From Streptococcus thermophilus (lineage in GTDB: Bacteria > Bacillota > Bacilli > Lactobacillales > Streptococcaceae), in assembly GCF_010120595.1 (NCBI RefSeq), contig NZ_CP038020.1:930001-994000 (forward strand): 64,000 bases of DNA, in the 5' to 3' direction. Positions 32,699 through 55,652 of the stretch are shown here, in pieces; position 1 is the stretch's first letter, and the number at the start of each line of letters is the position of its first letter. Made by a program: the position numbers and the translations under genes. A model generated the notes under the pieces. The model worked only from the letters and a program-made list of their open reading frames with translations, ran no database searches and was not told where the DNA came from.

Positions 32699-32710
32699 TA
32701 CCAAAATCAA

Positions 32711-32746: not shown

Positions 32747-32774
32747 GATGGGGAATCACATAAAGGAGGAAATG

Positions 32775-35083: not shown

Positions 35084-35100
35084 TAGAAAAGAGGAATCGT

Positions 35101-35343: not shown

Positions 35344-35359
35344 GAGGGCTAAGTATGAC

Positions 35360-36214
35360 ATGAACAACACATTACCTTCAGCTTTTGTCTTTCTAGCGTC
35401 AAAGAAAATTTCAAGCGATAGCCTATTTGAAGGCTTTAACGTGGACTTGGAATCGACGGCTAACTTGGTCAAATCCCTTGCGGATTATAACCCAACCGTG
35501 TGGTCTTATATGTCAGCGATCACAAAAGGAGTGATGCAGCCCTTGGGAGTGGCTATTTTAGCCGTTGTGTTAGTCCTTGAGTTTTCTAAGATGGCTAAGA
35601 AAATCGCCAACTCAGGTGGTGCCATGACCTTTGAAGCTATTGCCCCTATGATTGTCTCTTATATCATGGTGGCAGTAGTGATTACAAACACTACTGTTAT
35701 TGTAGAAGCTATTTTAGCTGTTGCTTCTCACATTATTGAAGGCGTAGCTGGTGTCGTTTCTCATGGGGGAACGACTTATGAGACCATTTCAGGACTTAAA
35801 GGTTCAGGAATTATTGGAAAACTCATTGTTGGCTTTTTTGCCATTCTGATATGGTTAGTGCGATTGGTTAGTGTGTTGGTGGTGAATCTCCTCATAACCA
35901 TTCGCTTTATCCAACTTTATCTCATGATTCCTTTTGCACCTTTAACGATTCCGACTTTCCTCAGTGATGACTGGCGAAGCGTTGGGATTGGTTACCTGAA
36001 AAATATCATGGTCTATGCCCTCCAAGGGGTCTTGATTTTCTTAATTATTTCCCTTGTTCCCCTCTTTGAATCAGCTGGGAAATTGGCCCTCTCAAATGGG
36101 GCGGGAGTGATGGAGACGCTAGCGACTGCCTTTGGTGGCTTAGTTCAGGCTATTTTGTTAATCATTGCCTTGGTGGGTAGTCAACGTACGGCCAGAAGTA
36201 TCCTAGGCATGTAA
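35360..36214 (+). CDS. VirB6/TrbL-like polytopic conjugation protein
   Basis: The 284-aa membrane protein has about six hydrophobic segments, for example VAILAVVLVLEFSKMAKKIA, IGKLIVGFFAILIWLVRLVS and VLIFLIISLVPLFES. The start at 35360 follows AGGAGG; the frame is open upstream but overlaps the previous gene. Such proteins form the inner-membrane channel of Gram-positive type IV secretion systems. Confidence 0.82.
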   Translation: MNNTLPSAFVFLASKKISSDSLFEGFNVDLESTANLVKSLADYNPTVWSYMSAITKGVMQPLGVAILAVVLVLEFSKMAKKIANSGGAMTFEAIAPMIVSYIMVAVVITNTTVIVEAILAVASHIIEGVAGVVSHGGTTYETISGLKGSGIIGKLIVGFFAILIWLVRLVSVLVVNLLITIRFIQLYLMIPFAPLTIPTFLSDDWRSVGIGYLKNIMVYALQGVLIFLIISLVPLFESAGKLALSNGAGVMETLATAFGGLVQAILLIIALVGSQRTARSILGM

Positions 36215-36275
36215 GGAGGATTGGGAAGGACGTTCCTCCCAATCTTTTTTCATATTTATCTTAGATTGGAGTCTT

Positions 36276-36629
36276 ATGAATACACGTGTTTTTAAGGACA
36301 TCACAAAAGTTCAACACAGGGCTTGGCTGGGTTTTACCACACGACAAGTTATTTTTGTCTTACCAGCCGTTGCTATTACCATCCTGATTTTAGGGTTAAA
36401 CCTCTTTTATTGGCAATTTGGGGATTGGTTTGTCTACGGACTAATCTTTACCTTTACCATTCCCCTCATGTTATTTGGGGTCTATCGACCTAATGACTTA
36501 CCTTTTGAAACGTATCTTAATTATAGATGGCATTATGAAATGACCATACCAGACCGTACACTAACAGGACAGAAAGGAATACGCTGTGAAAAAAACAAAT
36601 CGCTCAATGAAACCAAAGACCTCTTCTAA
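36276..36629 (+). CDS. PrgI-family conjugation membrane protein
   Basis: The 117-aa protein begins MNTRVFKDITKVQHRAWLGF and has two hydrophobic segments (VIFVLPAVAITILILGLNLF and FVYGLIFTFTIPLMLFGVY), the PrgI (VirB3-like) layout. Its end overlaps the VirB4 gene by 44 nt, and PrgI-VirB4 pairs are normally adjacent. Confidence 0.88.
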   Translation: MNTRVFKDITKVQHRAWLGFTTRQVIFVLPAVAITILILGLNLFYWQFGDWFVYGLIFTFTIPLMLFGVYRPNDLPFETYLNYRWHYEMTIPDRTLTGQKGIRCEKNKSLNETKDLF

Positions 36630-41626: not shown

Positions 41627-41631
41627 AAAAT

Positions 41632-41666
41632 AATATGCTAACAAATCATCAGGTTGTTAGCATATT
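41632..41666 (+). terminator. Hairpin after the T4SS genes sharing the AbiE operator motif
   Basis: AATATGCTAACAA (41632-41644) pairs with TTGTTAGCATATT (41654-41666), followed by GTTTTATTTG. It can end the conjugation transcript. Its arms contain the same ATATGCTAACA found in the abiE operator 50 nt downstream. Confidence 0.75.
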
Positions 41667-41689
41667 GTTTTATTTGTGGTTGATTTTTT

Positions 41690-41736
41690 CTAAATAATAT
41701 GCTAACATTGTAGTGAAATGTTAGCATATTATTTAG
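41690..41736. promoter_or_regulatory. abiE operator: 20-bp perfect inverted repeat
   Basis: The arms 41690-41709 and 41717-41736 are exact inverse complements around a 7-nt spacer, each containing ATATGCTAACA. The right arm runs into the abiEi RBS (AGGAGG at 41735-41740). AbiEi antitoxins are known to repress their own operon by binding such inverted repeats. Confidence 0.85.
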
Positions 41737-41747
41737 GAGGTGGTAAT

Positions 41748-42341
41748 GTGGATTTGTTAGAGAAACCTGTCTATAATTACATAAAAAAAAATCATGGAGT
41801 TATAACTTTTCGTGATATAGAAGAGCTTAACTTTTCTTACCAACAACTGAATCAATTGGTCTCAAAAGGTAAAGTGGAATCAATTGAAAGAGGGATTTAT
41901 CATCTACCTGATACCTATATTGATGATTTCTTTAGTTTACAGTATCGTTTTCCAAAAGGAATTTATTCCTTAGAAACAGCACTATGGTTACATGGCCTTT
42001 CCCTCACTGTTCCATTTGAACCTGTGATGACTTTTCCTTTTGGGACGAACACGAGGCTAATGAAAGAAGCTGGTGTTAAGCCGATTGTTGCTAGAAATCA
42101 TCATGAAATCGGTATTATAAAACTAGAGCGACAGGCTGGACAGTTTATCTCAGTATATGATATGGAACGAACTTTGGTAGAGTGTTTGAGAACAGCCTAT
42201 CATGTTGATGTTCAAGTCATTGCTCCAGCGTTTCAAACTTACTTTAAAAAAGGAGCTGTGAATTATGCCAAGTTGTACCACTATGCACAACTATTTAAAG
42301 TCACTGAAAAGCTACAATCTTATGTGGAGGTCTTGTCGTGA
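41748..42341 (+). CDS. abiEi: AbiEi antitoxin/autorepressor (type IV TA, abortive infection)
   Basis: The 197-aa protein counteracts the AbiEii toxin and represses the operon. The N-terminal winged helix is visible (GVITFRDIEELNFSYQQLNQ, LVSKGKVESIERGIYHLPDT). The C-terminal domain contains VYDMERTLVECLRT. I choose GTG 41748, 7 nt after AGGAGG, over the ATG 41718 that lies inside the operator. Its stop overlaps the toxin start by 4 nt. The gene appears intact. Confidence 0.88.
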   Translation: MDLLEKPVYNYIKKNHGVITFRDIEELNFSYQQLNQLVSKGKVESIERGIYHLPDTYIDDFFSLQYRFPKGIYSLETALWLHGLSLTVPFEPVMTFPFGTNTRLMKEAGVKPIVARNHHEIGIIKLERQAGQFISVYDMERTLVECLRTAYHVDVQVIAPAFQTYFKKGAVNYAKLYHYAQLFKVTEKLQSYVEVLS

Positions 42342-43192
42342 AATTTTCAAATACCAATAGCTTCAAAGCGAAGATTAAGAATATCGCAAGAGAAAAAGGG
42401 ATACCTGCTCAACAAGTTCAGCAGAACTATTTGATTGAAAAAATCTTAAGACTCATCTCTGAGAGTCGGTATAAAGATTCTTTCATTGTGAAAGGTGGAT
42501 TCCTTATCGGACAGATGATTGGCTTAGATAAACGAACAACAATGGATTTAGATGTTACTTTGAAAGGTCAACCTCTTAGCGAGGAAAATATTCAAACAAT
42601 CTTCAAAGAAATTGTAAGTCAACCTTCCGAAGGTTTTCAATTTGAAGTTGATATGTTAGAGCCAATTCGACAAGATGATGAATATGGGGGCTTTACCCTC
42701 AAACTCAAGGCGACATTCGATACCCTACGTGAAGTTGTCTTTATTGATATAACAACAGGTGATCGGATAACGCCACGAGAAATTACTTATCAATTGCAGT
42801 CTGTTTTTTCAGAGAATAAACTAGAAGTTTGGACTTATAATTTAGAAACTGTTCTTGCTTAAAAAATAGAAACGATTATTCGTCGAGGAGCTGCTTCAAC
42901 TAGACCACGTGATCGCTATGACCTCTTCACATTATATCACCTTCGAAAAGATGAGATTGATATCCCAATATTGAAAACTGCTCTAAACAATACTGCTAAG
43001 AAAAGAGAAAGCTTAGATGTTTTGACAAATTGGGAAAGTCAACTAGAGGAAATCCGCAGCTCTGATTACCAGAAACAGCTTTGGTCTCGCTATCAAAAAT
43101 CATTTAGGTATGCCAGTGAAATTAGTTTTGAGGAGTCGATAGAAGTGGTGGCAATTATTTTAAATCAATTAGGAGTTAGTAGTGTATGCTGA
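42338..43192 (+). pseudogene. abiEii: AbiEii nucleotidyltransferase toxin, truncated by a nonsense codon
   Basis: The frame is open from 42338 to 43192 except for one TAA at 42860-42862, where the conserved sequence would read VLAEKIETI. Before the stop are motif I (IVKGGFLIGQ) and the metal-binding motif II (TTMDLDVTL). After it are motifs III/IV (RRGAASTRPRDRYDLF) needed for nucleotidyl transfer. The 174-aa truncated product therefore lacks key residues and should be inactive. A single G-to-T change (GAA to TAA) would explain the loss. Confidence 0.88.
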
Positions 43193-43395
43193 CAGGAACT
43201 TTGAAGATGATGGGTTATGAATTTTTCTTTACATTTGATAAAGAAAAGTTATCCTTGATTCCTAAAGAAGAGAAAGATTCGATTAAGTATTCTTGGTTTT
43301 ATAAAAAATTGGAAACTGGGGGATATGCTTGGCCTGGAGATCCTAAATTTGTAGAAGAAGACTTTCTTTATGGACGTACAAATGAAACAAATTAG
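43186..43395 (+). CDS. Unrecognised 69-aa protein coupled to abiEii
   Basis: The ATG at 43186 overlaps the abiEii stop, so translation would normally be coupled to the toxin gene. The protein is soluble and rich in aromatic and charged residues (YEFFFTFDKEKLSLIPKEE, KLETGGYAWPGDPKFVEEDF). No family is recognised. It may be a third AbiE-locus component or an unrelated ICE gene. Confidence 0.55.
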   Translation: MLTGTLKMMGYEFFFTFDKEKLSLIPKEEKDSIKYSWFYKKLETGGYAWPGDPKFVEEDFLYGRTNETN

Positions 43396-43403
43396 GAAAT
43401 TTC

Positions 43404-43436
43404 CCGTATGACACACGGGGTCGGGTCTTACCCGAG
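43404..43436. other. Twin hairpins before the mobilisation genes; candidate oriT region
   Basis: CCCG with CGGG (about 43404-43421) and CGGGT with ACCCG (about 43424-43436) form two adjacent small hairpins in the 65-nt gap ahead of the MobC-type genes. Origins of transfer often lie just upstream of relaxosome genes. No nic consensus was recognised, so this is a weak call. Confidence 0.3.
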
Positions 43437-43460
43437 AAAGGATGAAAGAGAGGGAAAGAG

Positions 43461-43820
43461 ATGTCTGAACAGTACCGTGACATTCGAAAAGAAGTAAATC
43501 TAAACGCTGATGAGCTAAAACAGATTGAAAAAATGATGGAGGTTGATAGTTATCGTCACTTTTCACCATTTGTGAGAGACAAAATTTTGATGACTGATGA
43601 TAAACAGTTAGCTGCCAAAGAATGGTTCTCTCTTTGGCAATCTCAAAAGTTTGAGCAGATTAGTCGAGATGTGCATGAGGTTTTGATTATCGCAAGAGAG
43701 AATCACCAAGTGACTCAAGAACACGTGTCAATCTTATTGACCTGTGTTCAAGAATTGATTGCGGAAGTCAATCAAGCCCAGCTACTCAGTCGTGAGTTTC
43801 GTGAAAAATACATGAGATAG
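43461..43820 (+). CDS. Mobilisation accessory protein (relaxosome)
   Basis: The 119-aa helical protein begins MSEQYRDIRKEVNLNADELK. Its N-terminus resembles a ribbon-helix-helix relaxosome protein (EVNLNADELKQIEKMMEVDS, HFSPFVRDKIL) and the remainder is helical. It lies directly before a MobC-type gene and the relaxase, and probably helps bind oriT. Confidence 0.7.
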   Translation: MSEQYRDIRKEVNLNADELKQIEKMMEVDSYRHFSPFVRDKILMTDDKQLAAKEWFSLWQSQKFEQISRDVHEVLIIARENHQVTQEHVSILLTCVQELIAEVNQAQLLSREFREKYMR

Positions 43821-43829
43821 GAGGTCGCT

Positions 43830-44195
43830 ATGGTTTATCGTTATCGTACCAATCTCAAAAAAGTATTTCTAACAGATTCAGAGTTACATAAATTGAATGA
43901 ACGAATTGCTAGGAGCGATTGTCAAAATTTCTCAGTCTATGCCAGAAAAGTTTTGCTTAATCCAAACATGTCATTTATAACAATTAACACGGATATCTAT
44001 GACCAGTTGGTTTTTGAATTGAGGCGGATTGGAAATAACATCAATCAAATTGCGCGTGCTATTAACCAAAGCCATCTGATTTCTCAGAACCAGTTACAAG
44101 AATTGAGTAAAGGAGTCGGAGAGTTAATTAAGGAAGTGGATAGAGAATTTCAAGTGGAAGTGAAAAGACTGAAGGAGTTTCATGGTAGTCACTAA
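43830..44195 (+). CDS. mobC: MobC-family relaxosome protein
   Basis: The 121-aa protein has an N-terminal DNA-binding segment (TNLKKVFLTDSELHKLNERI, CQNFSVYARKVLL) and the MobC signature ELRRIGNNINQIARAINQ. MobC helps unwind oriT for the relaxase. The RBS is AGGAGG, and the gene overlaps the relaxase start by 14 nt. Confidence 0.88.
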   Translation: MVYRYRTNLKKVFLTDSELHKLNERIARSDCQNFSVYARKVLLNPNMSFITINTDIYDQLVFELRRIGNNINQIARAINQSHLISQNQLQELSKGVGELIKEVDREFQVEVKRLKEFHGSH

Positions 44196-46047
44196 GCATT
44201 TTGCGACACATGGTAAAAAATATCGTAGGAGTCTGATCAAGTATATCCTCAATCCTGATAAAACGGACAATTTGAAATTGGTATCTGATTTTGGCATGAG
44301 CAATTACTTAGACTTTCCTAGCTATGAAGAAATGGTAGAAATGTACAATATCAACTTTACCAATAATGATAAGCTGTACGAATCAAGAAATGACCGACAA
44401 GAAAAACACCAGCAAACTATTCATGCTCATCACCTCATTCAATCATTTTCTCCTGAAGATAATCTGACACCTGAGGAAATCAACCATATCGGTTATGAGA
44501 CCATAATGGAATTAACAGGCGGACGTTTTCGTTTCATCGTAGCAACTCATACAGACAAAAATCATACCCATAATCACATCCTAATCAATGCTATAGATCG
44601 TAATTAAGATAAAAAGTTGATATGGAATTATGCCTTGGAACGAAACCTTCGTATGATTTCAGACCGCATTTCTAAAATGGCTGGGGCAAAAATTATTGAA
44701 AAGCGTTACTCCTACCGTGACTATCAAAAATATAGGCAGTCTAGTCATAAATTTGAATTGAAGCAACGTCTTTATTTTTTGATACAACAGTCAAAGTCCT
44801 TTGATGATTTTTTGGAAAAAGCAGAGCAATTACATGTTCATATTGATTTTAGTCAGAAGCATAGCCGCTTTATGATGACGGATAGAGCAATGACAAAACC
44901 AATTCGAGGACGTCAACTCAGCAAACGAAATCTATATGATAAAGATTTTTTTAGAACGCATTTTGTCAAGCAAGAGATTGAAAGCCGATTAGAATTTCTG
45001 TTGAATCGTGTTAATTCATTAGAGGAGCTACTATTAAAAGCAAAAGAATTGAATCTAACCATTGACTTAAAACAAAAAAATGTGACCTTTACTCTTGAAG
45101 AAAATGGGAAACCGATAAGTCTGAGTCATAAAAAAATAAGTGACAAGAAATTATATGATGTCAATTTTTTTCAAGATTATTTTAAAAATAAGGAAGTTGG
45201 TGTTTCATATGGATTAGAAAATCTACAGAAACAGTACCATGCTTTTCAAGAAGAACGAGATAAGGAGAAGGTATCCACTGAAGAGAGTGAGGAAGCCTTC
45301 AAGAAATACAAGGGGCAACGAGATGCCATCCATGAGTTTGAAGTTGAACTTGTGGAACATCAAATTGAGAGGTTAGTTGATGAGGGCATTTATATCAAGG
45401 TGTCTTTTGGTATTAAGCAGAGTGGTCTTATTTTCATTCCCAACTATCAATTGGATATTATGGAAGAAGAAAATCATAAAAAATATAAAGTCTATATCCG
45501 TGAGACAACCTCATACTTTATCTATAACAAAGAAAATTCTGAGATGAACCGTTACATAAAAGGACGGACCTTAATTAGACAGCTAACTAATGATAGTCGG
45601 ATGATACCATATAGACGACCAACAGTTGAGAGTCTACAAGAAAAGATTTCTGAGATTAACCTCTTGGTTGAATTAACTGAAACTGATAAGAAATACCAAG
45701 ACATTAAAGACGAACTGGTTGCAGAAATAGCAGAGCTAGATATAAAACTGACTCAAACAAACGAAAAAATCACCACCTTAAACAAGATGGCGGAAGTATT
45801 TATCAATCTGAAGGGTGCCGAACTGAGCAGTCAAAAACTAGCAAGGTATGATTTTTCAAAACTAAATTTAACCGAATCAATTTCATTAGAACAGGTAAAT
45901 GAGAAAATAGGAGTATTACAAGAGAAATTAGATCGTTATCTTGATGAGTATGAATCATTAGTTAGAAGATTGGAAACATTTGCGAAAATTTTTAATAACA
46001 ACAAGAATATGTACCAAAAATTTCAAGAAAATGTCTCTGTTGAATAA
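44182..46047 (+). pseudogene. MobA-type relaxase (MOB-P like) with an in-frame stop
   Basis: The reading frame is open from 44182 to 46047 apart from a TAA at 44605-44607, right after the metal-binding His motif (HTDKNHTHNHILINAIDRN). The N-terminal 141 residues keep catalytic motifs I and III, but the remaining 476 residues, including IWNYALERNLRMISDRISKM and long coiled-coil segments, would not be made. The relaxase nicks oriT and leads DNA transfer, so the ICE should not conjugate on its own unless the stop is read through or complemented. Confidence 0.88.
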
Positions 46048-46105
46048 ACAATTTTGTTAATCAATCAGTGAGATATTCTGTGACGTTTGCAATTATTGTC
46101 GATTC

Positions 46106-46134
46106 TAAAATAGAATGGTACTTTATCTGCCATG
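46106..46134 (+). repeat. Left copy of 29-bp imperfect repeat flanking the lantibiotic cargo
   Basis: The sequence begins TAAAATAGAATGG and ends TATCTGCCATG. The copy at 53979-54007 differs at three positions. Both contain a short hairpin (ATAGA.. with ..TTTAT or CTCTAT). Confidence 0.75.
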
Positions 46135-46138
46135 GCTA

Positions 46139-47524
46139 CTAATAATTATCATGTTCTAGAGGTAAATTAATAATAACTTTAAAGAATTGATTCTCTTTAC
46201 TTTCCACTTTAAAAGTTCCCTCATGAACTTCAATAATTTGTTTTGAGATTTTTAATCCCATACCGTGTCGTCTAATTCCTGAAATGTCAAATTCTTCAAT
46301 GATTTTATTACTATCATAAATTGATAATAGTTTATCATTTGCTATGCCGATGCCATCATCCTCAATTGTAATTATTAAAAATTCTTTATCTCTGTGTAGA
46401 CTAATATTCACATTACAGCCCTCAGGATCCTCAGGATTATGGAGAATAGAGTTATAGATAATATTATGAACTACACGTGAAATTAAGTTTTTTTCAATTG
46501 AGATTTTACTATTTTGAAGTTCATCATCAAATTCAAATGAAAAATTTATATTTTCCCAAACTTCTTGATTTATTATTTGTATAATGATCTCCTTGAAGAA
46601 TGGAATTATTTTGACTGATTCTAATTTCAGAGTGAACTGGCTATTAGTTAATCTGGCAAAAATATTTAAGTCATTTACAGTATTTTGAATATAATAACTC
46701 TCATTAAGTATGGAACGTAAACGTCTTAATTGATTTTTATCCACTGTATCAGATCTAATAAGAGAAGCATTTGAAGTAATGACGGAAAGAGGGGTTTTTA
46801 TATCATGTGCGATACCAGAAATCCAATTTTCTTTAAAAAGTTCACCTTCTTTTAGTTTTTTGTCAGCAATATTTATAGCTTCCGTTAATTGTTTTAGCTC
46901 ATCTTGAGTTGAAACAGAACCACTAAGCCCTTCTGGTAATTTTTTAATCGCTAAAACTAAAGGAGTAATCTTACGTTGGACTAATCTAGTACTGTAGGTA
47001 TAAATAATTAATAGATACAGACAATTTATTCCAAGTAGAAAAAAAGCTAAAATAAATAAGCTATGAAGGTCGGATTTTTCATAATAATCGAAAGGAAATC
47101 TAAAAACTCTATCTTTTGAAAATCCAAAAACAAGGATCTTATTATTAACAATTTGTACGAATACGGGGTAATCATTTAAATAATAACGTGTAAACTTAGC
47201 GACGTCAGCTAGGTTATATTGTGTCGGGATTTCACTTGGCTTTTTATATTCATAGATTTCCTCGCCACTATCAGAGTCTAAAATCATAATCCATACCTCT
47301 TTAGAATTAGCTAATTTTTTCCCAAAGTTAGATAATTTGGCAGAATTAGAACTGATATCAAGTTGTTTGACTAGATTATTCACTGTGTCCATCACATTAG
47401 TTTGATTTGCTTGACTAAAAACAAAAAATCCTAGAATAAAAACGTTTATTATGGACATGACTATGATTGAAACAATAAAACGTCTAATAAATTGTGTTAA
47501 TACACGTAGTTTAAACATGTACAA
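46139..47524 (-). CDS. sivK: Lantibiotic sensor histidine kinase (LanK)
   Basis: The 461-aa membrane kinase has two membrane segments (FIRRFIVSIIVMSIINVFILG and LHSLFILAFFLLGINCLYLL) around an extracellular sensor domain of roughly 120 residues. The H-box GIAHDIKTPLSVITSNASLI carries the phospho-accepting His. The ATPase domain has N-box VVHNIIYNSILHNPED and G-box DDGIGIAND with HGMGLKISKQI. It presumably senses lantibiotic or peptide outside the cell and phosphorylates the partner regulator, whose gene overlaps it by 14 nt. The gene is visibly A+T-richer than the ICE backbone. Confidence 0.88.
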   Translation of the reverse strand: MYMFKLRVLTQFIRRFIVSIIVMSIINVFILGFFVFSQANQTNVMDTVNNLVKQLDISSNSAKLSNFGKKLANSKEVWIMILDSDSGEEIYEYKKPSEIPTQYNLADVAKFTRYYLNDYPVFVQIVNNKILVFGFSKDRVFRFPFDYYEKSDLHSLFILAFFLLGINCLYLLIIYTYSTRLVQRKITPLVLAIKKLPEGLSGSVSTQDELKQLTEAINIADKKLKEGELFKENWISGIAHDIKTPLSVITSNASLIRSDTVDKNQLRRLRSILNESYYIQNTVNDLNIFARLTNSQFTLKLESVKIIPFFKEIIIQIINQEVWENINFSFEFDDELQNSKISIEKNLISRVVHNIIYNSILHNPEDPEGCNVNISLHRDKEFLIITIEDDGIGIANDKLLSIYDSNKIIEEFDISGIRRHGMGLKISKQIIEVHEGTFKVESKENQFFKVIINLPLEHDNY

Positions 47525-48227
47525 GCTCCTGTACCATTAGTTTATAGCCGAGTCCTTTAACAGTAATTAAGTATTGTGGCTTTGAAGGGTTAAGTTCGAT
47601 TTTTTCTCTGATATTTCTGATATGGACCATTAAAGACTTTTCATATCCAAAACTATCAATGCCCCATACGGTATCACAAATCGCCTCTGTAGATACAATA
47701 TAGTTTTTATTATCATATAATTTCCGAACGATTTGAATTTCTATTGGGGTTAAAGAAAGTTTTTCATTATTTTTTTCAACAATAGCATTTCCTAAATTAA
47801 TAATGCAATTATCTAATTTAATAATGTTACTGTCTTCTTTGTACGACCGACGGAGAAGCGAAATTATGCGATAAATGAGAATTTTAGGAAGGAAAGGCTT
47901 AGTCACGAAATCATCTCCTCCAGATTGTAACCCTTGAATTTCATCTTCAGGTTCATTTTTTGCTGTTAGAAAAAGAATTGGAATATCAGAATTTTTTCTT
48001 ACGTATTTTGATAGTAAATATCCTTTCCCATCTGGAAGCATGACATCTAATATAATCAAATCAATAGAATTATTAATAAAAGACTCTATTCCTTCACTGA
48101 TGCTGTATGCACTATATATTTTTTTGAAACCAGAAACTGATAGTATCTCCCTTATTGAATTGTTTAACGCAATATCATCATCAACAACCAATATTTTTCT
48201 AGTTAAAAAAGGCGTTTCTATATCCAT
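47511..48227 (-). CDS. sivR: Lantibiotic response regulator (LanR, OmpR type)
   Basis: The 238-aa regulator has a receiver domain with the acidic pocket VVDDD and phospho-accepting Asp in LIILDVMLPDGKGY, plus the conserved Lys in DFVTKPF. It has an OmpR-type winged helix at the C-terminus (LTPIEIQIVRKL, GYEKSLMVHIRNIREKIE). It is divergent from the precursor gene and probably activates it through the intergenic inverted repeat. The RBS AGGAG precedes its ATG. Confidence 0.9.
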   Translation of the reverse strand: MDIETPFLTRKILVVDDDIALNNSIREILSVSGFKKIYSAYSISEGIESFINNSIDLIILDVMLPDGKGYLLSKYVRKNSDIPILFLTAKNEPEDEIQGLQSGGDDFVTKPFLPKILIYRIISLLRRSYKEDSNIIKLDNCIINLGNAIVEKNNEKLSLTPIEIQIVRKLYDNKNYIVSTEAICDTVWGIDSFGYEKSLMVHIRNIREKIELNPSKPQYLITVKGLGYKLMVQELVHV

Positions 48228-48348
48228 AAGCTCTCCTAGTAAAATAATTTGAATTTTCCATATCTATATTTATAGTATATCAAAAATTTCAAGTAAAAAG
48301 TAAGTCCACTAAAATCTTTAGGATTTCTTAAAGTGAATTTTAATATTT

Positions 48349-48390
48349 CTTTATCTTGTACTTATAAAATGTAACTGTAACAAGATAAAG
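48349..48390. promoter_or_regulatory. 11-bp perfect inverted repeat in the divergent lanR/lanA region
   Basis: CTTTATCTTGT (48349-48359) and ACAAGATAAAG (48380-48390) are exact inverse complements, with arm centres about 31 bp apart, three helical turns. The spacer contains a TATAAA-type stretch. It is the best candidate for a LanR operator controlling the precursor gene 40 nt downstream. Confidence 0.6.
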
Positions 48391-48429
48391 ATGCTTGATA
48401 TTGATTTACTTTAAACGAGGAGAATAGCT

Positions 48430-48600
48430 ATGAAATCAACAAATAATCAAAGTATCGCAGAAATCGCAGCAGTAAATGCACTACAAGAAGTAAGTATGGA
48501 GGAACTCGACCAAATTATTGGTGCTGGAAACGGAGTAGTACTTACTCTTACTCACGAATGTAACCTAGCAACTTGGACTAAAAAACTAAAATGTTGTTAA
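48430..48600 (+). CDS. sivA: Lantibiotic precursor, lacticin 481 group (salivaricin 9-like)
   Basis: The 56-aa prepeptide has a 32-residue leader (MKSTNNQSIAEIAAVNALQE, then VSMEELDQIIGA) ending in a GA double-glycine-type cleavage site. The 24-residue core starts GNGVVLTLTHECNLATW and ends in two cysteines. The TxTHEC...CC arrangement is that of the lacticin 481/SA-FF22 group, with Thr and Cys ready to form (methyl)lanthionine rings. From memory the core is that of salivaricin 9. The RBS is GAGGAG. No LanM synthetase gene follows, so the peptide cannot be modified by this locus. Confidence 0.9.
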   Translation: MKSTNNQSIAEIAAVNALQEVSMEELDQIIGAGNGVVLTLTHECNLATWTKKLKCC

Positions 48601-50680
48601 ACATTTAAATAGAAAAATTTTACTTAAGCACTCAAGTATTTCTATCTGTTACACAATGCTATTGAATGATTTAGGATACAAAGTACCTTTGTACGAGGTT
48701 TATGAAAGAGATTCACTTCCAGCTGATGGCTTGAGTGTTTCCTATTTACTGACTCTAAATAAAAAATTTAATGTAGATATGAAGGCGTATAAAGCTAATT
48801 TTGACGAAGTTGTAAGTCTAATACGTGCTAGAGGCAATAACAGGATGATTGTTCATTGGAATAATGATCATTTTGTCGTCCTAGAAAAAATAACCAAAAA
48901 TTATATAAAAATTGTGGATCCTGCAATAGGAAGAATTAAATTTAGTAAGGAGGAATTTTTAGAGCACTATTCTGGAACGGTTATTACCGTCTTCCCGACT
49001 GTTGATTTTCATCGTCAAAAAGTGAAGACGCTATTTTTTAAATATTTTAAAAACACACTTGATGTAAGAGTAATTTTCTCTTTTTTGATTTCGCTACTTT
49101 TGATTGAAATTAGCATTTTACTATTTTCGATTGTGATAAGAAATATGATGGCTGGAGATTTAAAATTTATATCAAGCCTTCTCTTATTGTTTACTATTAT
49201 GTTACTACAAGTTGTTGGATATTATATTAAGAATTTTGCGCTAGAAAAATATAATAGTAATTTTGATAAATCTTATACAACTATCTTATTTAAGAGATTA
49301 CTAAATAAACCATTATTATATTTTAGAAATCATACCAATGGAAGTGTTTCTGAAAAAATCAGTTTCAGAACGACATTGAGAGATAGTGTAGCATCAAAAT
49401 TAATCCCTTCAATAATAAGTCTAGTTTCATCATTTGTAATTTTTATATATTTGGCCATAATATCTTTTAGACTAACTATTATTTTGGTTTCTATGATTGT
49501 ATTATATTCTTTAATATCATCTGTTTTATATCATAAGCAGAACGAATATAATCAATCCTATCTACAATACCTAATTGATTTTAACTCAGATTTTCAATCT
49601 GATCTAGAAGATATAGATTACATTAAAGTAATGAGAAATGAGAGGGGAACGGAAGATAGATGGATAAAAAATAATGATCGTTTGACAAGCAAATATTTCC
49701 AAATTTTAAAAGTTGAAAATTTTGTTCAACTTTTTGGAAGTATATTTAGCTATTTTAGTTTATCAGTTATTATTTTAGCAGTAATTTATAATAATAAATT
49801 TTTTAATGTTTCAATAGCAGATTTAGTATTATATCAAACAAGTATATCATTATTGATTTCATCTATTGAACAGGTGAAAACCTCAATTTTTGAAATAGCA
49901 CGATTAGCTATATATGCCGAAAAGCAGGGGGATATACTAAAAGAAAATTTACCAATAAATGTTAATTTTGATTTAGATTCAAACTATATAATTCAGACTG
50001 AAAATTTAAACTTCGGTTATGGAAATGAATCGCTATATAAACCAGTTAATTTAAAAATTAGTCAAGGTGAAAAGATAGCAATTATAGGTAAATCAGGTAG
50101 CGGTAAATCTACATTGCTATTATTATTAACTGGCATGTTAAGATATTCTGGCAAGATTACATATAATAGTGAATATCTAGAAAACTATATGGGAGTTGTC
50201 TTGCAAAATATGACATTGAAAAAGGGAAGTGTATTAGAAAACTTTGAATATGACTCTTCTGATTTAACTAAGCTATCCAGAATACTTGTTGATACCACAG
50301 CAGATGAGGTCATTGCTAAACTTCCAAATAAATTACAATCGAAATTGTTAAAACAGGGAAAGAATCTTTCAGGAGGACAAATCCAGAAATTACTAATTGC
50401 CAAATCACTATTGAAAGGTGAAAAAATTATTTTTTGGGATGAAGCTTTTAGTAATTTGGACGAAGTGAGTAAAGATAAGATTTATGAAAATGTATTATTG
50501 GGAGATTTCTATAAGGAGCAAACAATGTTAATTGTAAGTCACCACTTGGATATTGTGAACTATGTTGGTAGTGTTATCTTTATAAATGATGAAACAGGTG
50601 AGGTCATTAAATCAACTCACGAGGATTTAAAAAAGAATAACTTGGACTACAAGAAATTTATTTGTAATAAAAGTGTCTAG
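48601..50680 (+). pseudogene. sivT: LanT peptidase/ABC exporter lacking its start and catalytic Cys
   Basis: The frame is open from about 48602 with a first ATG at 48656 but no RBS. The C39 peptidase domain starts only at ICYTMLLNDLGYK. In relatives the catalytic Cys lies four residues before this second Cys; here that position is Ser within unrelated sequence. The catalytic His (IVHWNNDHFVVLEK) and Asp regions remain, followed by membrane segments and an ABC domain with Walker A IGKSGSGKSTLLL, signature NLSGGQIQKLLIAKSLL and Walker B IIFWDEAF. The deletion that removed lanM apparently ended here. Confidence 0.82.
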
Positions 50681-50733
50681 TACTTTAGTGTTGGCATTAA
50701 CAAAAATTTAAAACGAAAGGTATGGATTATACA

Positions 50734-51642
50734 ATGACAGAAGTAATAAAACTAAAAAAATTGAAGAAAATTTTTAAAGGAGTAGCATCAGTTGATATAG
50801 AAAGACTTACAGTTAGAAAAGGGGAAATTTATGGTTTCCTTGGTCCTAATGGTGCAGGAAAAACTACGACAATGAAGATGATTCTATCATTAATTGAACC
50901 TACTTCTGGTTCAATTGAAGTAATGAACGCTCCAATTAACAAATCAAACGATTACCTAAAATATATAGGGTCAATGATTGAAGAACCTTCATACTATCCA
51001 AATTTAACAGGTTATGAAAATCTATTAGTTTTTCAAAAAATGTTAGGTTTTAAAGAAGAGAATATTTTAAAAACACTTGAACTTGTGGGATTATCAGAAG
51101 AAAAAAATAGAAAAAAATTAGTAAAAGCCTACTCTTTGGGTATGAAACAGCGTTTAGCCCTAGCATTTGCTTTAGTAAAAGAACCTCAGATATTATTATT
51201 GGATGAACCAACAAATGGATTAGATCCCTCTGGTATTCATGAGATACGTGAATTGATTATTCGTTTGGCTAAAGAGGAAGGACTAACAATTTTCATTTCT
51301 AGTCATATTCTATCTGAAATTGAGCTGATTGCTGATAGAGTTGGAATTATAAATCATGGGAGATTAGTATACGAGGGAGAAATTGAAAAAATAAATGCTA
51401 ATAATTGGGTAGAGATTGAAGGAAAATTTGACATTGAAAAATTAAAAAATCTTTTTGGTGATAGTTTTAGTAATAGAAAAGTAGAATATACTGCAAAACT
51501 TATTAAAATCTGGAATGCTAATAACGAGCAAATCGCTAATATAGTCCGTTCCTTGGTTGAACTAGACTTTCCAATTTTTCGTGTAGAACATAGAAAAGAA
51601 AATCTCGAAGATATATTTTTAGAATTAACTAAGGAGTTATAA
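50734..51642 (+). CDS. sivF: Lantibiotic immunity ABC transporter, ATP-binding subunit (LanF)
   Basis: The 302-aa ATPase has Walker A GFLGPNGAGKTTTMK, signature AYSLGMKQRLALAFAL and Walker B ILLLDEPTNGLDPSG. The usual Q-loop glutamine is replaced by Glu (SMIEEPSYYPNLTGYENLLV), the E-loop typical of LanF immunity ATPases. LanFEG expels lantibiotic from the membrane of the producer. The ATG at 50734 is likely (AAAGG 13 nt upstream); 50722 is the alternative start. Confidence 0.9.
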   Translation: MTEVIKLKKLKKIFKGVASVDIERLTVRKGEIYGFLGPNGAGKTTTMKMILSLIEPTSGSIEVMNAPINKSNDYLKYIGSMIEEPSYYPNLTGYENLLVFQKMLGFKEENILKTLELVGLSEEKNRKKLVKAYSLGMKQRLALAFALVKEPQILLLDEPTNGLDPSGIHEIRELIIRLAKEEGLTIFISSHILSEIELIADRVGIINHGRLVYEGEIEKINANNWVEIEGKFDIEKLKNLFGDSFSNRKVEYTAKLIKIWNANNEQIANIVRSLVELDFPIFRVEHRKENLEDIFLELTKEL

Positions 51643-51643
51643 A

Positions 51644-52399
51644 ATGGTTAATGCTTTACAAATAGAATTATTGAAAAGTCGTAGGACAAAATCGTTTATT
51701 ATTACAATATTCCTCATGTTAATTGGATTCTTGTGGAATACAGTTAGTACTGGTAGTGAAATTAATTCAGTAAGTTATGACGGAGTTAGTGTGCTATTTA
51801 ATAATCAAACAATGAATAGCTTTTTTCTTCCCATAGCTATTAGTATTTTCACTAGCCGTATAGTTTCTAATGAACTTGAAGGACAGACATTTAAGCTACA
51901 GGAATCAAACGGAATTACATTAACTCAAATTTTTTACAGTAAATTAATTTTATCAACTGTTTTCTTTTTGATATTGGCTATTTTAGAAACAGTTGCAACG
52001 AATGTATTTGCAATGGTTAACGGAGTAAGTGTCCCTCTAACAATCACTATTCTTCAAATTTTAGGACAACTATTGTCAAGTTTCAGTCTCATTTGCCTTT
52101 ATTTAACTTTCGCAATGTTTACTGATAAACAAGGCTTATTGTTATCATCAGGTTTTATAGGTGGCTTTATAGGTTTAATATTAGCATCCAAATCTACAAT
52201 ATTGTGGACATTCGCTATACCGTGGGTTGGCTGTTCTTATTTGTCTCCTTACAAATTTACTCTAATAAATAATTCAAGCTATCTTTATAAATTTGACCAA
52301 TCAATATACTTTAGACTTTTAATATATCTAATTTATTGTTTACTGTTATATCTTCTTGTAAGAGGTATATTTTTGAAGAAAGAGAGACAAAGAAAATGA
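51644..52399 (+). CDS. sivE: Lantibiotic immunity ABC transporter permease (LanE)
   Basis: The 251-aa protein has six hydrophobic segments, for example FIITIFLMLIGFLWNTVS, LILSTVFFLILAILETVA and LLIYLIYCLLLYLLVRGIF. It starts 1 nt after the LanF stop with AAGGAG as RBS and overlaps LanG by 4 nt. It forms half of the immunity transporter membrane domain and appears intact. Confidence 0.87.
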   Translation: MVNALQIELLKSRRTKSFIITIFLMLIGFLWNTVSTGSEINSVSYDGVSVLFNNQTMNSFFLPIAISIFTSRIVSNELEGQTFKLQESNGITLTQIFYSKLILSTVFFLILAILETVATNVFAMVNGVSVPLTITILQILGQLLSSFSLICLYLTFAMFTDKQGLLLSSGFIGGFIGLILASKSTILWTFAIPWVGCSYLSPYKFTLINNSSYLYKFDQSIYFRLLIYLIYCLLLYLLVRGIFLKKERQRK

Positions 52400-53130
52400 G
52401 ACATTATATTTCAGCTGAATGGAAAAAGCTGAATAAAATTCAGCTTTTAATAATTGGTGTTGTTTTTGTAGCATTATCAAGTTTTATTGGCTTAGGTACC
52501 TATTTTGCTAATCAATCAGTTTTAATTGATGGTACACAGGATAAAGTGATGTGGGGACAATTAACTTTCTATTATACTCAAATTCTTTATCCTCCAATGC
52601 TCGCAATTTTTATAGCAATATCTTTAATTCAAGAGTTTGAAAGAAAAAATTTGGAAATGTTACGTTCAAATGCAGTATCTATCAAAAAGTTACTGATAAG
52701 CAAGCTATTTACCGTTACTGCATTAGTCATTCCAATTCAATTCCTCGTACTAATTGTTTATATTGTAGCTTTAAAAGTAGCTAATGTTGAACTCTCTTCT
52801 TTTGTCCTATTAACTTTAAAATGGACACTTTTATCTATTTTGAGCTCTTTATCAATTTTATGCATACAAGCGTTTGCCTATGCTAAAACTAGAAGTTTTG
52901 GTCAATCAATTGGCATTTCAGCTTTAGGCGCTATGGGCGGGTTCGTCTTATTGTTTTTGAATGTAAACTTAAATAAATTTTACCCATATTCTCAACCTAT
53001 GATAGCATTGAGAAGTAGAGCTTTAGAAGATTTTTCACTATTAGAACTTACTATTTTTATCTTTGTTAATCTTCTGTTTAGTGTGATTTTTTACAGATTA
53101 ACATGTTATGAACTAGAAAAAAGAGGATGA
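52396..53130 (+). CDS. sivG: Lantibiotic immunity ABC transporter permease (LanG)
   Basis: The 244-aa, six-segment membrane protein begins MRHYISAEWKKLNKIQLLII and contains PPMLAIFIAISLIQEFERKN, typical of LanG. The ATG at 52396 overlaps the LanE stop (ATGA); the open frame upstream of it lies inside lanE. With LanF and LanE it completes an intact immunity module. Confidence 0.87.
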   Translation: MRHYISAEWKKLNKIQLLIIGVVFVALSSFIGLGTYFANQSVLIDGTQDKVMWGQLTFYYTQILYPPMLAIFIAISLIQEFERKNLEMLRSNAVSIKKLLISKLFTVTALVIPIQFLVLIVYIVALKVANVELSSFVLLTLKWTLLSILSSLSILCIQAFAYAKTRSFGQSIGISALGAMGGFVLLFLNVNLNKFYPYSQPMIALRSRALEDFSLLELTIFIFVNLLFSVIFYRLTCYELEKRG

Positions 53131-53645
53131 TGTAATTATGTAACTGCCTTAAATTAGACCAATTAATTGATAAATAAAATTTAGTATCTAATTGTTGTTA
53201 TCTAACAATATACATGTTGCTCGCATGATAGTTAATGCTAGTCGAAAGAGCATTCCTTGTGCGATAACGTTTTAACCGATATAAGCTTTACTAATTCTCA
53301 GTCTTACTATCAGTATAAATAAGAATTGTTTCAGTTTTCTCGCTGTATCAATTACAATAAGGCGTTTTCTACTTCGTGAGTTTATTATTTTCTATTACTT
53401 TGCTAAATCGGTTTACGTTTTTTCAATTGCGGTCTAGATATTATTGTTTTGTCATTTAGATTGCCTCTAGTTTTTTGTAGTGTAATCAAGTAGTTATAGG
53501 ATGTTATGAATATATGTTCTAAAATGAATCAATATTTTATAGTCATTAGTTCGCGATAAATAATTTAAAGTGATGTTGTCATATTATGACAATTTTCGAG
53601 ATTTTTTCTCAAAGTGACATATACTTTTTCTTAGGAGAAAGCTAG
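53131..53645 (+). other. 515-nt A+T-rich gap after the immunity genes
   Basis: No ORF with a convincing start is present. A 17-bp palindrome TTGTCATATTATGACAA lies at 53576-53592, 54 nt before the XRE regulator gene, and may be its operator. I saw no terminator with a strong stem after lanG. Confidence 0.5.
53576..53592. promoter_or_regulatory. 17-bp palindrome ahead of the XRE regulator
   Basis: TTGTCATA-T-TATGACAA is a perfect palindrome around a central T. It is a plausible operator for the small helix-turn-helix protein encoded just downstream. Confidence 0.55.
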
Positions 53646-53870
53646 ATGTACCAACGGATAATAGATTTGAGGGAAGATCATGATTTCACTCATAAGTTTG
53701 TTGCAAATTTACTTTCCTTTTCTCATACAAATTATGCAAAAATTGAGAGAGGAGAGGTTGCCTTAACGGCAGATGTTCTTGTGCAGCTTTCTAAACTCTA
53801 TAACGTTAGTACAGATTACCTATTAGGGTTAACAGATTGTCCAGATAGGATAAAACATAAAATAAAATAG
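53646..53870 (+). CDS. XRE-family transcriptional regulator of the ICE
   Basis: The 74-aa product is a Cro/CI-type helix-turn-helix domain (IDLREDHDFTHKFVANLLSF, SHTNYAKIERGEVALTADVL) followed by the usual LSKLYNVSTDYLLGLTD. RBS TTAGGAGAAA precedes the ATG. Such genes sit near xis/int in related ICEs and may control excision or transfer genes; that role is inferred. Confidence 0.82.
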   Translation: MYQRIIDLREDHDFTHKFVANLLSFSHTNYAKIERGEVALTADVLVQLSKLYNVSTDYLLGLTDCPDRIKHKIK

Positions 53871-54141
53871 TCTCTCCTTGATTTGTTCATTGACAACTGA
53901 ATAAACCGAGGTGGGACTTTCTTATTTGTCGAGCAATTTAGTGCGATTCGCTGTGATAGGAGCGATAACAATCAGCTATAAAATAGAGTGGTTCTCTATC
54001 TGCCATGACATATCAAATGAGGACAATGATACTTCTGAACGTTCAGGCTGCCAGCGTAAAAGGACAGTGGGTGAGACGCCCATGAGTGATTTAACCAATC
54101 ATACCTACTGAGGAAATAATTTTTTTGACAGGAGTGGAGGT
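53871..54141 (+). other. Intergenic region containing the right copy of the cargo repeat
   Basis: No convincing gene is seen in 271 nt. It carries the 29-bp repeat copy at 53979-54007 and several short palindromic stretches. It ends with the RBS of the DUF3173 gene (AGGAGTGGAGG). Confidence 0.5.
53979..54007 (+). repeat. Right copy of 29-bp imperfect repeat flanking the lantibiotic cargo
   Basis: It differs from 46106-46134 at three of 29 positions. It contains the hairpin ATAGAG-tggtt-CTCTAT. Together the copies bracket the A+T-rich cargo and the XRE gene. Confidence 0.75.
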
Positions 54142-54390
54142 ATGAAAACAGTAACATATAAAAACTTGATGAATATTGGTTTTCCTGAACATACGGCAAG
54201 AAACATCATTAGAGAAGCAAAAAGAATAGCAGTAAAAAAGTTTGAAGAAGCTCGCAAAGTTGACCATAATGCGGTACAATTAAGTAAATCGCCCTTTGAC
54301 AATAGAAGACTTGGTATTGCTCCTAAAGATATAGTAGAAGAGTTAATCGGAATTTCACTCTCTGAAGACAATTTAGAAAGTGAGAATTAA
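54142..54390 (+). CDS. DUF3173 protein, probable excisionase
   Basis: The 82-aa basic protein begins MKTVTYKNLMNIGFPEHTAR and has a helix-turn-helix-like N-terminus. DUF3173 genes lie directly before the integrase in rplL-type ICEs and are thought to act as excisionases. The integrase ATG follows 2 nt after its stop. Confidence 0.82.
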   Translation: MKTVTYKNLMNIGFPEHTARNIIREAKRIAVKKFEEARKVDHNAVQLSKSPFDNRRLGIAPKDIVEELIGISLSEDNLESEN

Positions 54391-54392
54391 AG

Positions 54393-55598
54393 ATGGCTAC
54401 AAAAAATCAAAAAAAGTATAAAGGTGTTTATTGTGATAAGAATGGCAAGATATTTTATCAGGCTGATCTTGGTGTTGATCCAGTAACAGGTAAACGAGTT
54501 CAAAAGAAAGCTAGAAAGAATCAGTATGGTAAGCCATTTACTACAATGAAAGAAGCGTATGATGAACTGGTTCGAATTAGGTATGAGTTTATTAATAACC
54601 TTAGTATTGAAAATTATAATATAACATTTGAAAGTTATATGAATACCATTTATCTAAGAGCTTATAAGCAAAAGGTACAAGCTGTAACTTATAAAACTGC
54701 TTTGCCACATCATAAGTTATTTATTCAGTATTTTGGCTCTAAACCTTTAAAAGGCATAACAGCTAGAGATTGTGAATCTTTTAGATTGCACATCATTGAG
54801 CATTATTCTGAAAATTATGCAAAGAATTTATGGTCACGATTTAAGGCTTGTATGGGATATGCTGAGAGATTAGGATATATTTCATCTATGCCATGCAAGG
54901 CGTTAGATAACCCTAGAGGCAAGCACCCTGATACTCCATTTTGGACTTATATTGAGTTTCAGAACTTTATTAAATCATTTGATTTACAAGATTACGAAGA
55001 TTTACAAAGATTCACAACTATTTGGTTATATTATATGACAGGTGTTCGTGTAAGTGAAGGTTTATCGTTATGGTGGGAAGATGTCGATTTTGAACATAAA
55101 TTCTTGAAAGTTCATACAACCTTAGAGAAGGATGAAAATGGAAATTGGTATCGTAAAGACCAAACCAAAACACCTGCTGGAGAACGCCTCATTGAACTGG
55201 ATGATGTGACAATATCAGTATTGGAAAATTGGCGAAAAAATCAAGTTGCCAATCAAGATACAGATTTCATTATTTCACGATTTGGTGAACCGTTTTGTAA
55301 ATCAACGATCTGTCGAATCATTAAGAGAAAAGCTAAAGAAGTTGGAGTACCAGTGATAACAGGAAAAGGATTGCGGCACAGTCATGCTTCCTATCTCATA
55401 AATGTTTTGCAGAAAGATATTTTATATGTGGCAAGACGAATGGGACATGCTGATAAGTCTACAACCTTAAATACATATAGTCACTGGTTTAATGCATTAG
55501 ATAAAACAGTATCAGAAGAAATCACCCAAAATGTAATTAGTGCAGGACTGGATTCCATTTTATGCCAAAATTCCTGCCAAACTCTGAGTAAAGGCTAA
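54393..55598 (+). CDS. int: Tyrosine recombinase (ICE integrase)
   Basis: The 401-aa integrase inserts and excises the ICE at the rplL 3' end. It has an N-terminal arm-binding domain (AP2-like, YKGVYCDKNGKIFYQADLGV), a SAM-like core-binding domain, and the catalytic domain. Catalytic residues include the Arg in MTGVRVSEGLSLWWEDVDF, the second Arg in GKGLRHSHASYLI (Lys where His is usual), the His in RMGHADKSTTLNTYSHW and the Tyr that follows it. The gene appears intact and ends 40 nt before attR. Confidence 0.94.
   Translation: MATKNQKKYKGVYCDKNGKIFYQADLGVDPVTGKRVQKKARKNQYGKPFTTMKEAYDELVRIRYEFINNLSIENYNITFESYMNTIYLRAYKQKVQAVTYKTALPHHKLFIQYFGSKPLKGITARDCESFRLHIIEHYSENYAKNLWSRFKACMGYAERLGYISSMPCKALDNPRGKHPDTPFWTYIEFQNFIKSFDLQDYEDLQRFTTIWLYYMTGVRVSEGLSLWWEDVDFEHKFLKVHTTLEKDENGNWYRKDQTKTPAGERLIELDDVTISVLENWRKNQVANQDTDFIISRFGEPFCKSTICRIIKRKAKEVGVPVITGKGLRHSHASYLINVLQKDILYVARRMGHADKSTTLNTYSHWFNALDKTVSEEITQNVISAGLDSILCQNSCQTLSKG
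55563..55581 (+). repeat. Right arm-type repeat of the ICE
   Basis: TGCCAAAATTCCTGCCAAA, inside the end of int, matches 28393-28411 at 18 of 19 positions in direct orientation. Confidence 0.6.
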
Positions 55599-55637
55599 AA
55601 AGCCAATTATACCGCCAACAGAGTAACGTGTGTTATT

Positions 55638-55652
55638 GTTACTCTTAAATAA
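55638..55652 (+). repeat. attR core of the ICE
   Basis: GTTACTCTTAAATAA is an exact copy of the rplL 3' end at 28285-28299. Sequence to its right is chromosomal. Confidence 0.95.

What the first reader, a model, noticed from the sequence alone, without database searches (positions are those of the whole stretch)
48430..50680. Salivaricin-type lantibiotic locus with lanM deleted and the transporter protease decapitated
The precursor (48430-48600) looks complete and is preceded by kinase/regulator genes. Only 55 nt separate it from a LanT frame that begins inside the C39 peptidase domain, after the position of the catalytic Cys. No LanM gene exists anywhere in the window. One deletion between the end of lanA and codon about 15 of lanT would remove all of lanM and the LanT start. 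The locus can still sense and resist (LanK, LanR, LanFEG) but should not make active peptide, which is a resistance-only or cheater state. The alternative is that a LanM encoded elsewhere in the genome acts in trans.
Basis: partly seen in the sequence, partly recalled or inferred. Interest (0 to 1): 0.82.

Follow-up and report, generated by a model that had tools for sequence, protein, structure and literature searches.

The report
Lantibiotic locus reduced to self-protection
A gene cluster that once made an antibacterial peptide has lost its manufacturing genes in one clean deletion but kept the sensor and the protective pump, a state that related streptococci have reached several times.

Summary
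The window holds a salivaricin 9 (siv) locus, sivK-R | A-T'-F-E-G. Against intact loci (S. salivarius NU10 plasmid, S. gallolyticus BI02) it lacks 2,966 bp. The junction is an 8-nt microhomology (CTGTTACA) joining the sivA 3' UTR to sivT codons 15-16. Lost are sivM, a predicted terminator between sivA and sivM, and the sivT start with the Cys that aligns with that of the LahT protease. No LanM was found in the single-contig 2.10-Mb genome. sivK, R, A, F, E and G have no stops. The locus is cargo of an ICE in rplL (28,285-55,652).

S. suis and S. moroccensis loci carry larger sivM-sivT deletions with other junctions, so the loss recurred. Of 38 LanFEG loci examined across the genus, 31 have no lanM beside them and 19 of those keep readable lanA or lanT scars. 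In print, a sivKRFEG locus with matching primer sites raised bacitracin MIC four-fold in E. faecalis JH2-2, and some non-producing scnA+ S. pyogenes are immune to SA-FF22.

So: a sense-and-resist relic that should not make salivaricin 9; a new member of a known kind. The resistance phenotype of this copy is inferred.

The parts
46139..47524 (-). sivK, sensor histidine kinase (461 aa, TTG start)
   Evidence: Pfam HisKA + HATPase_c; 89% to NU10 SivK, no stop
47511..48227 (-). sivR, response regulator (238 aa)
   Evidence: Pfam Response_reg + Trans_reg_C; 94% to NU10 SivR
48228..48429 (.). sivR/sivA intergenic region with the presumed sivA promoter, retained
   Evidence: alignment of 6 loci, mean column identity 93%; promoter itself not mapped
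48430..48600 (+). sivA, salivaricin 9 precursor, complete (56 aa)
   Evidence: NF040664 67.5 bits; 1 nonsynonymous difference to NU10, none to BI02
48646..48653 (+). deletion junction: 8-nt microhomology CTGTTACA; 2,966 bp of the intact locus missing here (sivM, terminator-like hairpin, sivT start)
48656..50680 (+). sivT', N-terminally truncated peptidase-ABC exporter (674 aa), lacks the Cys of the protease; keeps the rest of the C39 domain, membrane domain and ATPase
   Evidence: Pfam C39 20-131 of 133, ABC_membrane, ABC_tran
50734..51642 (+). sivF, immunity ABC ATPase (ORF open from 50722)
   Evidence: best NCBIfam TIGR03740 lantibiotic-protection ATPase 239.8 bits, below its 309.75 cut-off; 97% to NU10
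51644..52399 (+). sivE, immunity ABC permease
   Evidence: Pfam ABC2_membrane_4; TIGR03732 MutE/EpiE weak, below cut-off; 99% to NU10
52396..53130 (+). sivG, immunity ABC permease
   Evidence: Pfam ABC2_membrane_4 (on the longer ORF from 52336); 95% to NU10
28285..55652 (+). integrative conjugative element in the 3' end of rplL that carries the locus as cargo; 15-nt direct repeats at 28285-28299 and 55638-55652
   Evidence: repeats equal the reverse complement of the 15-bp repeat printed for ICESsu1112S; rplL ORF (Pfam Ribosomal_L12) ends 28299; RepA_N, T4SS coupling protein, TraG-like ATPase, MobC, relaxase, DUF3173, tyrosine integrase

Best explanation
This is a salivaricin 9 locus turned into a sense-and-resist cassette by one microhomology-mediated deletion of 2,966 bp. 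Shown by sequence: loss of sivM, of a terminator-like hairpin between sivA and sivM, and of the start and protease Cys of sivT; open frames for K, R, A, F, E, G; residence on an rplL ICE. Inferred: SivK senses salivaricin 9 (or a similar cell-wall stress) from neighbours, SivR fires the sivA promoter, and the transcript now runs without that hairpin through sivA and sivT' into sivFEG, whose pump clears the lantibiotic. The SivA chain is made unmodified, is not cut by SivT', and is a bystander. The cell is protected without paying for production.
For: Junction and lost parts. Terminator-like site in NU10 (15-pair stem then T run; 1 found, shuffles mean 0.2; fold z -3.83 for NU10 and -2.47 for BI02), none found in window 48220-48800. 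No LanM in the genome. Frames: K, R, A, F, E, G without stops in 4 of 4 sivM-less siv loci. Recurrence: S. suis and S. moroccensis loci with other junctions; 31 of 38 LanFEG loci without lanM beside them. sivA drift once M is gone: 4 nonsynonymous and 0 synonymous changes among deleted loci against 1 and 10 between the intact ones (counts; Fisher p 0.0037; recent changes lean nonsynonymous anyway, so this is soft). Across 14 related KR-FEG loci, median dN/dS is 0.13-0.33 for K, R, F, E, G and 0.80 for the leftover leader. Function of relatives: PMC8849049 section 8, sivKRFEG raised bacitracin MIC of E. faecalis JH2-2 from 32 to 128 mg/l, and its cloning primers match window 45731 (3 mismatches) and 53237 (0 mismatches); PMC3332205, five scnA+ non-producers resist SA-FF22; PMC3797685, pure salivaricin 9 induces sivA+ strains.
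Against: PMC4162386: S. pyogenes SF370 with an incomplete sal locus senses salivaricin A yet stays sensitive, and an immune strain becomes sensitive when maturation genes are mutated. PMC3332205 also reports that pure salivaricin G32 does not induce its own family, so the inducer may not always be the peptide. No expression or resistance data exist for this strain. The window deletion looks recent (2 synonymous and 4 nonsynonymous changes in sivT on its branch), so open frames alone do not prove use. K and G differences among the close siv loci have dN/dS up to 0.71 and 1.14 on few changes. In the 14-locus set the useless lanT tail has a dN/dS (0.32, 5 pairs) no higher than K or E. PMC8849049 section 8 reports bacitracin only, no lantibiotic test.
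Confidence: 0.74

Rival explanations
1. A recently broken cluster, carried along by its ICE and decaying neutrally, with no protective effect.
For: Few changes on the window branch in sivT; sivA drifts in S. suis copies; SF370 precedent of sensing without immunity (PMC4162386). One genus locus (L141) has stops or breaks in FEG as well as in lanM, and in L126 F and E match only in pieces.
Against: The same outcome arose more than once; FEG and KR stay open in all four deleted siv loci and evolve under constraint in 14 loci of another reduced lineage (one of these, L136, has 2 stops in G); a printed relative confers bacitracin resistance.
Confidence: 0.17
2. The retained SivA or its leader has a new role, for instance as a signal peptide, cut by another C39 exporter.
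For: sivA is intact in window and S. moroccensis; six other species keep a leader-only lanA; in S. mutans, SMU.1147, described as lying in the ScnRK (LcrRS) operon, encodes a peptide whose loss raises lctFEG (PMC11960140 passages). One other C39 frame without stops exists in the genome.
Against: Leader dN/dS about 0.80 (11 pairs) and an internal stop in 1 of 6 leader-only loci; S. suis YS161 SivA has changes at residue 2, in the leader and in the core; 8 species have lost all but 10 codons of their lanA. That SMU.1147 is a lanA fossil was not tested.
Confidence: 0.06
3. SivA is modified in trans by another synthetase of the genome and the locus still produces.
For: A 779-aa LanKC-like protein with RamC_N, kinase and a partial LANC_like match exists (L047).
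Against: No LanM; the LanKC-like protein is class III-like, below NCBIfam's cut-off (235 of 575 bits), with a partial cyclase; SivT' lacks its Cys.
Confidence: 0.02
4. The junction is an assembly or cloning artefact.
For: No reads were available.
Against: Single contig; only an 8-nt repeat, too short to collapse an assembly; other genomes carry other deletions of the same genes.
Confidence: 0.01

Closest known systems
Salivaricin 9 locus sivKR-AMTFEG of S. salivarius NU10 (NZ_MN480762.1)
   Same: Gene order, 89-99% protein identity of K, R, A, T, F, E, G
   Different: Window lacks sivM, the hairpin between sivA and sivM and the sivT start; chromosomal ICE instead of megaplasmid
'Bacitracin locus' sivK-R-F-E-G of ICESsu1112S, S. 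suis (PMC8849049)
   Same: Same genes, an ICE in rplL with the same 15-bp repeat, flanking primer sites matching with 0-3 mismatches
   Different: Authors list five ORFs and no sivA or sivT; the window keeps sivA and most of sivT.
LcrRS-LctFEG of S. mutans, a Cpr-type lantibiotic resistance operon (PMC5786555)
   Same: Two-component system plus three-part ABC-2 pump without LanM
   Different: Window still holds the precursor and a truncated exporter; the S. mutans sequence was not compared
Incomplete sal and scn loci of S. pyogenes (PMC4162386, PMC3332205)
   Same: Structural gene and immunity/sensor genes kept, no peptide made
   Different: Other peptides and deletions; phenotype differs between them (sal strain SF370 sensitive, five scn strains resistant)

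Membership tests
Class II (lacticin 481 type) lantibiotic biosynthetic locus | Precursor with lacticin-481-type core | tested here: met
   NF040664 67.5 bits, cut-off 46
Class II (lacticin 481 type) lantibiotic biosynthetic locus | LanM synthetase | tested here: not met
   None in window or genome
Class II (lacticin 481 type) lantibiotic biosynthetic locus | LanT with complete C39 protease | tested here: not met
   Starts after the protease Cys
Cpr-type / LcrRS-LctFEG-like lantibiotic resistance operon | Sensor kinase and response regulator beside the pump genes | tested here: met
Cpr-type / LcrRS-LctFEG-like lantibiotic resistance operon | ABC-2 pump of one ATPase and two permeases | tested here: met
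   NCBIfam immunity models match below their cut-offs
Cpr-type / LcrRS-LctFEG-like lantibiotic resistance operon | None of the biosynthetic machinery present | tested here: inconclusive
   LanM absent, but precursor and truncated LanT remain
Cpr-type / LcrRS-LctFEG-like lantibiotic resistance operon | Pump induced by, and protecting against, a lantibiotic | not testable with these tools
   needs the strain
rplL-inserted ICE (ICESsu1112S / 89K kind) | Insertion at rplL 3' end with the 15-bp repeat | tested here: met
rplL-inserted ICE (ICESsu1112S / 89K kind) | Intact relaxase and transfer genes | tested here: inconclusive
   T4SS coupling protein, TraG-like ATPase, MobC, integrase present, VirB6-like match below cut-off; relaxase reads as two ORFs

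The most novel reading that the evidence does not exclude
Streptococci repeatedly turn lantibiotic factories into inducible resistance cassettes along one route: a deletion from just after (or inside) lanA into lanT keeps the lanA promoter, drops what lies between, including (in siv) an attenuating hairpin, and puts the pump genes under the lanA start. Later trims leave only KR-FEG. The 'novel bacitracin locus' of S. suis ICEs, and probably LcrRS-LctFEG operons, are end points of this route, and the window is an early intermediate, recognisable by its scar, now travelling on an ICE.
Probability: 0.55. Interest if true: 0.58.

Novelty: new member of a known kind. Interest (0 to 1): 0.42.

Why it matters
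It gives base-level fossils for something so far only assumed (PMC5786555 passage: one can assume Cpr operons are evolutionarily linked to producing strains): how stand-alone lantibiotic resistance arises. It also suggests that a bacitracin resistance locus on S. suis ICEs is a reduced lantibiotic locus, and predicts that strains carrying such cassettes resist salivaricin 9-producing oral streptococci.

Tried and rejected
LanM in trans: no candidate found. One search's control was silent in all 14 genomes, so it was backed by the SivM protein search. Assembly collapse: judged unlikely. A single ancestral deletion for all siv loci: rejected, because the S. suis copies keep UTR sequence the window lacks and the window keeps sivT that they lack. 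The S. moroccensis junction, whose UTR resembles the window's more than the S. suis one, may be its own event or a 25-nt trim of the S. suis type at TAAGT repeats; left open. Selection on the window sivT: not decidable (2 vs 4 changes; Fisher p 0.21). The viral contig scans found no SivA relative (26 stretches matched a pattern, none confirmed) and no copy of the junction. Nine further window and genome proteins were sent for Pfam names, which failed on a wrong coordinate of one; the set was not repeated. In one search the fourth sequence (L107) was folded from the wrong place and is not used. tRNA scan of 24-64 kb: none. In one search, I kept the LanE rows of 32% identity or more (38 loci after fetching) and dropped the weaker rows, so the 31 of 38 count is for close LanE relatives only, one genome per species. 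In one search, K, R, M, F, E, G hits of 35 bits or less were not printed. In one search, pairs with dS of 0.02 or less or fewer than 20 shared codons were dropped (of 91 pairs, 68-87 remain per gene for K, R, F, E, G).

Full report
What is there. The window lies at 930,001-994,000 of a single-contig 2,102,268-base Streptococcus genome (completeness 99.98%), species not named by the tools. By a 3-kb stretch at rpoB its nearest neighbours among 284 genomes are three unnamed ones at 96, 96 and 94%; none of them is among the 18 of 284 genomes with a SivA match. On the minus strand lie sivK and sivR; on the plus strand sivA, a sivT lacking its start, and sivF, sivE, sivG. SivA equals that of S. gallolyticus BI02 and differs from NU10 by one residue.

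The deletion. The intact locus of S. salivarius NU10 (L006), its near twin on an S. equinus plasmid (L008) and the BI02 locus (L001; L109) run K-R / A-M-T-F-E-G. BLAST pieces meet in the window at 48646-48653. The left arm is the sivA 3' UTR, the right arm the end of sivT codon 15 onwards, and both arms carry CTGTTACA in NU10 (10586 and 13552 of L006), 2,966 bp apart. Random junctions in this stretch share 8 or more bases in 0.053% of 400,000 draws, so a microhomology-driven deletion is the natural reading. The new first start codon, 48656, is Met19 of SivT; I see no Shine-Dalgarno-like sequence before it (my reading, no call), so translation is probably poor.

What was lost. (a) All of sivM. 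(b) The protease Cys: NU10 SivT Cys12 aligns with the Cys of 6mpz (its catalytic role is recalled); the rest of the C39 domain, the membrane domain and the ATPase remain. (c) A terminator-like hairpin with a T run at L006 10625-10658 (1 found, shuffles mean 0.2), which folds well in NU10 and BI02 (z -3.83 and -2.47). No such site is found in window 48220-48800. In all four deleted siv loci the left break lies before this hairpin, so sivFEG is no longer behind it. That this raises sivFEG expression is inference.

Not restored elsewhere. SivM as query finds nothing in the own genome but gives matches in 31 of 284 Streptococcus genomes, many distant or partial, with 92% identity over full length in G045. 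LANC_like finds two places in the own genome: a 779-aa LanKC-like protein and a fragment with stops.

Recurrence. The loci of S. moroccensis (L002) and S. suis 10581 and YS161 (L003, L004) lack sivM and all but about 50 codons of sivT. The S. suis copies retain UTR bases the window lacks and the window retains sivT they lack, so neither type can come from the other by deletion. I then searched the genus with SivE (50 of 284 genomes), fetched the loci of 32% identity or more and classified 38 LanFEG loci: 7 with lanM (two of these with stops in lanM); 4 with KR, full-length lanA and a lanT remnant (window, L106-L108); 7 with KR and a lanA leader with truncated core (L114, L128-L131, L137, L138); 11 with KR-FEG and no lanA hit; 9 with FEG and no KR hit in the stretch. 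So 31 of 38 have no lanM beside them; one of these, L112, is cut by its contig end, but the genome search found no LanM in that genome either. Six of the leader-only loci carry a lanT tail by tblastn, and the seventh, L114, a short one (23 aligned residues, score 59, best of 300 shuffles 42). Eight of the 11 KR-FEG loci keep the first 10 lanA codons fused in frame to the last 6 lanT codons, the frame ending just inside lanF, a nested trim of the leader-only type. Scars are thus readable in 19 of 31. Against L128, the cassette is about 96-98% alike in the other 13 loci while flanks mostly do not match (L129, L130, L131 and L137 share some flank), so the cassette seems to move.

Constraint. In 14 loci of the leader-only and trimmed lineage, median pairwise dN/dS is 0.32 (K), 0.18 (R), 0.13 (F), 0.33 (E), 0.23 (G) against 0.80 for the leader (11 pairs) and 0.32 for the lanT tail (5 pairs); L136 has two stops in G. 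The lanT tail value is no higher than K or E, which speaks against a simple contrast between used and unused parts. Among the sivM-less siv loci, sivA shows 4 nonsynonymous and 0 synonymous changes, against 1 and 10 between NU10 and BI02. Also against my reading: K and G of the same close loci reach 0.71 and 1.14 on small counts.

Vehicle. A 15-nt direct repeat at 28285 and 55638 is the reverse complement of the repeat printed for ICESsu1112S, and the left copy is the 3' end of rplL. Between them lie RepA_N, a C5 methylase, a T4SS coupling protein, a weak VirB6-like match (below cut-off), a TraG-like ATPase, AbiEi/AbiEii, MobC, a relaxase read as two ORFs, the siv locus, DUF3173 and a tyrosine integrase. 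L004 aligns with 43392-54122 of the window apart from the deletion, so siv sits in the same ICE slot in S. suis YS161.

What is in print. Papers were seen as search listings and passages, and PMC8849049 section 8 in full. PMC8849049: a sivKRFEG locus on an rplL ICE of S. suis, cloned in E. faecalis JH2-2, raised bacitracin MIC from 32 to 128 mg/l. Its primers match the window at 45731 (3 mismatches) and 53237 (exact), and L002 and L004 at corresponding places (0-2 mismatches); L003, whose contig starts later, has only the second. PMC3332205: five scnA+ non-producing S. pyogenes were resistant to SA-FF22; pure salivaricin G32 did not act as inducer. PMC3797685: pure salivaricin 9 induced strains with sivA. 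PMC4162386: most S. pyogenes sal loci examined carry deletions in maturation genes; SF370 senses but stays sensitive. PMC2705793: the 89K-type ICE has a lantibiotic cluster with salM interrupted. PMC5786555: LcrRS-LctFEG resists lacticin 481 and nukacin ISK-1, and a link to producers is assumed. PMC6120550: partial streptococcin clusters read as cheaters. In ten literature searches the listings and passages I saw held no description of this junction or the scar series; the library lacks most subscription journals.

Verdict. The finding is real and correctly read. Immunity-only lantibiotic loci are known, so this is a new member of a known kind. What adds interest is the recurrence, the scars, the lost hairpin and the link to a published bacitracin locus.

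Noticed in passing
window 44182-44607 and 44617-46047: The ICE relaxase reads as two ORFs in one frame (nuclease part; central and C-terminal parts), so transfer may depend on a helper.
   Followed up: partly
window 42338-42862: AbiEii match covers profile positions 3-143 of 238 in a 174-aa ORF, so the toxin of this type IV pair looks shortened; AbiEi lies just before it.
   Followed up: no
L047:402-2741 (own genome, about 611.9-614.2 kb): 779-aa LanKC-like class III synthetase with a partial LanC domain, followed by an MFS transporter gene; possible second lanthipeptide locus or remnant.
   Followed up: partly
L048 (own genome, about 251.5-255.5 kb): LanC-like fragment with stops between an MFS transporter gene and a transposase: a decayed lanthipeptide locus.
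   Followed up: partly
L142-L145 (own genome): Of four C39 exporter loci in the genome one has a full C39 match in a frame without stops; one has a stop, one is split over two frames, one is sivT'.
   Followed up: no
L109 7977-8671 (S. gallolyticus BI02): In the otherwise complete BI02 siv locus sivR matches in two overlapping pieces, suggesting a frameshift or sequencing error.
   Followed up: no
L009 (plasmid NZ_CP020429.2): A related KR-FEG set with no annotated lanA, lanM or lanT on a Streptococcus megaplasmid, while related megaplasmids carry full loci.
   Followed up: no
L114 (G184): Leader-only lanA joined to the last part of lanT before lanF: a separate deletion in another lantibiotic lineage.
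   Followed up: partly
L127, L132-L136, L139, L140: 16-codon mini-ORF, lanA start fused in frame to the lanT end and ending just inside lanF; it may couple translation from the lanA ribosome site to the pump gene.
   Followed up: partly
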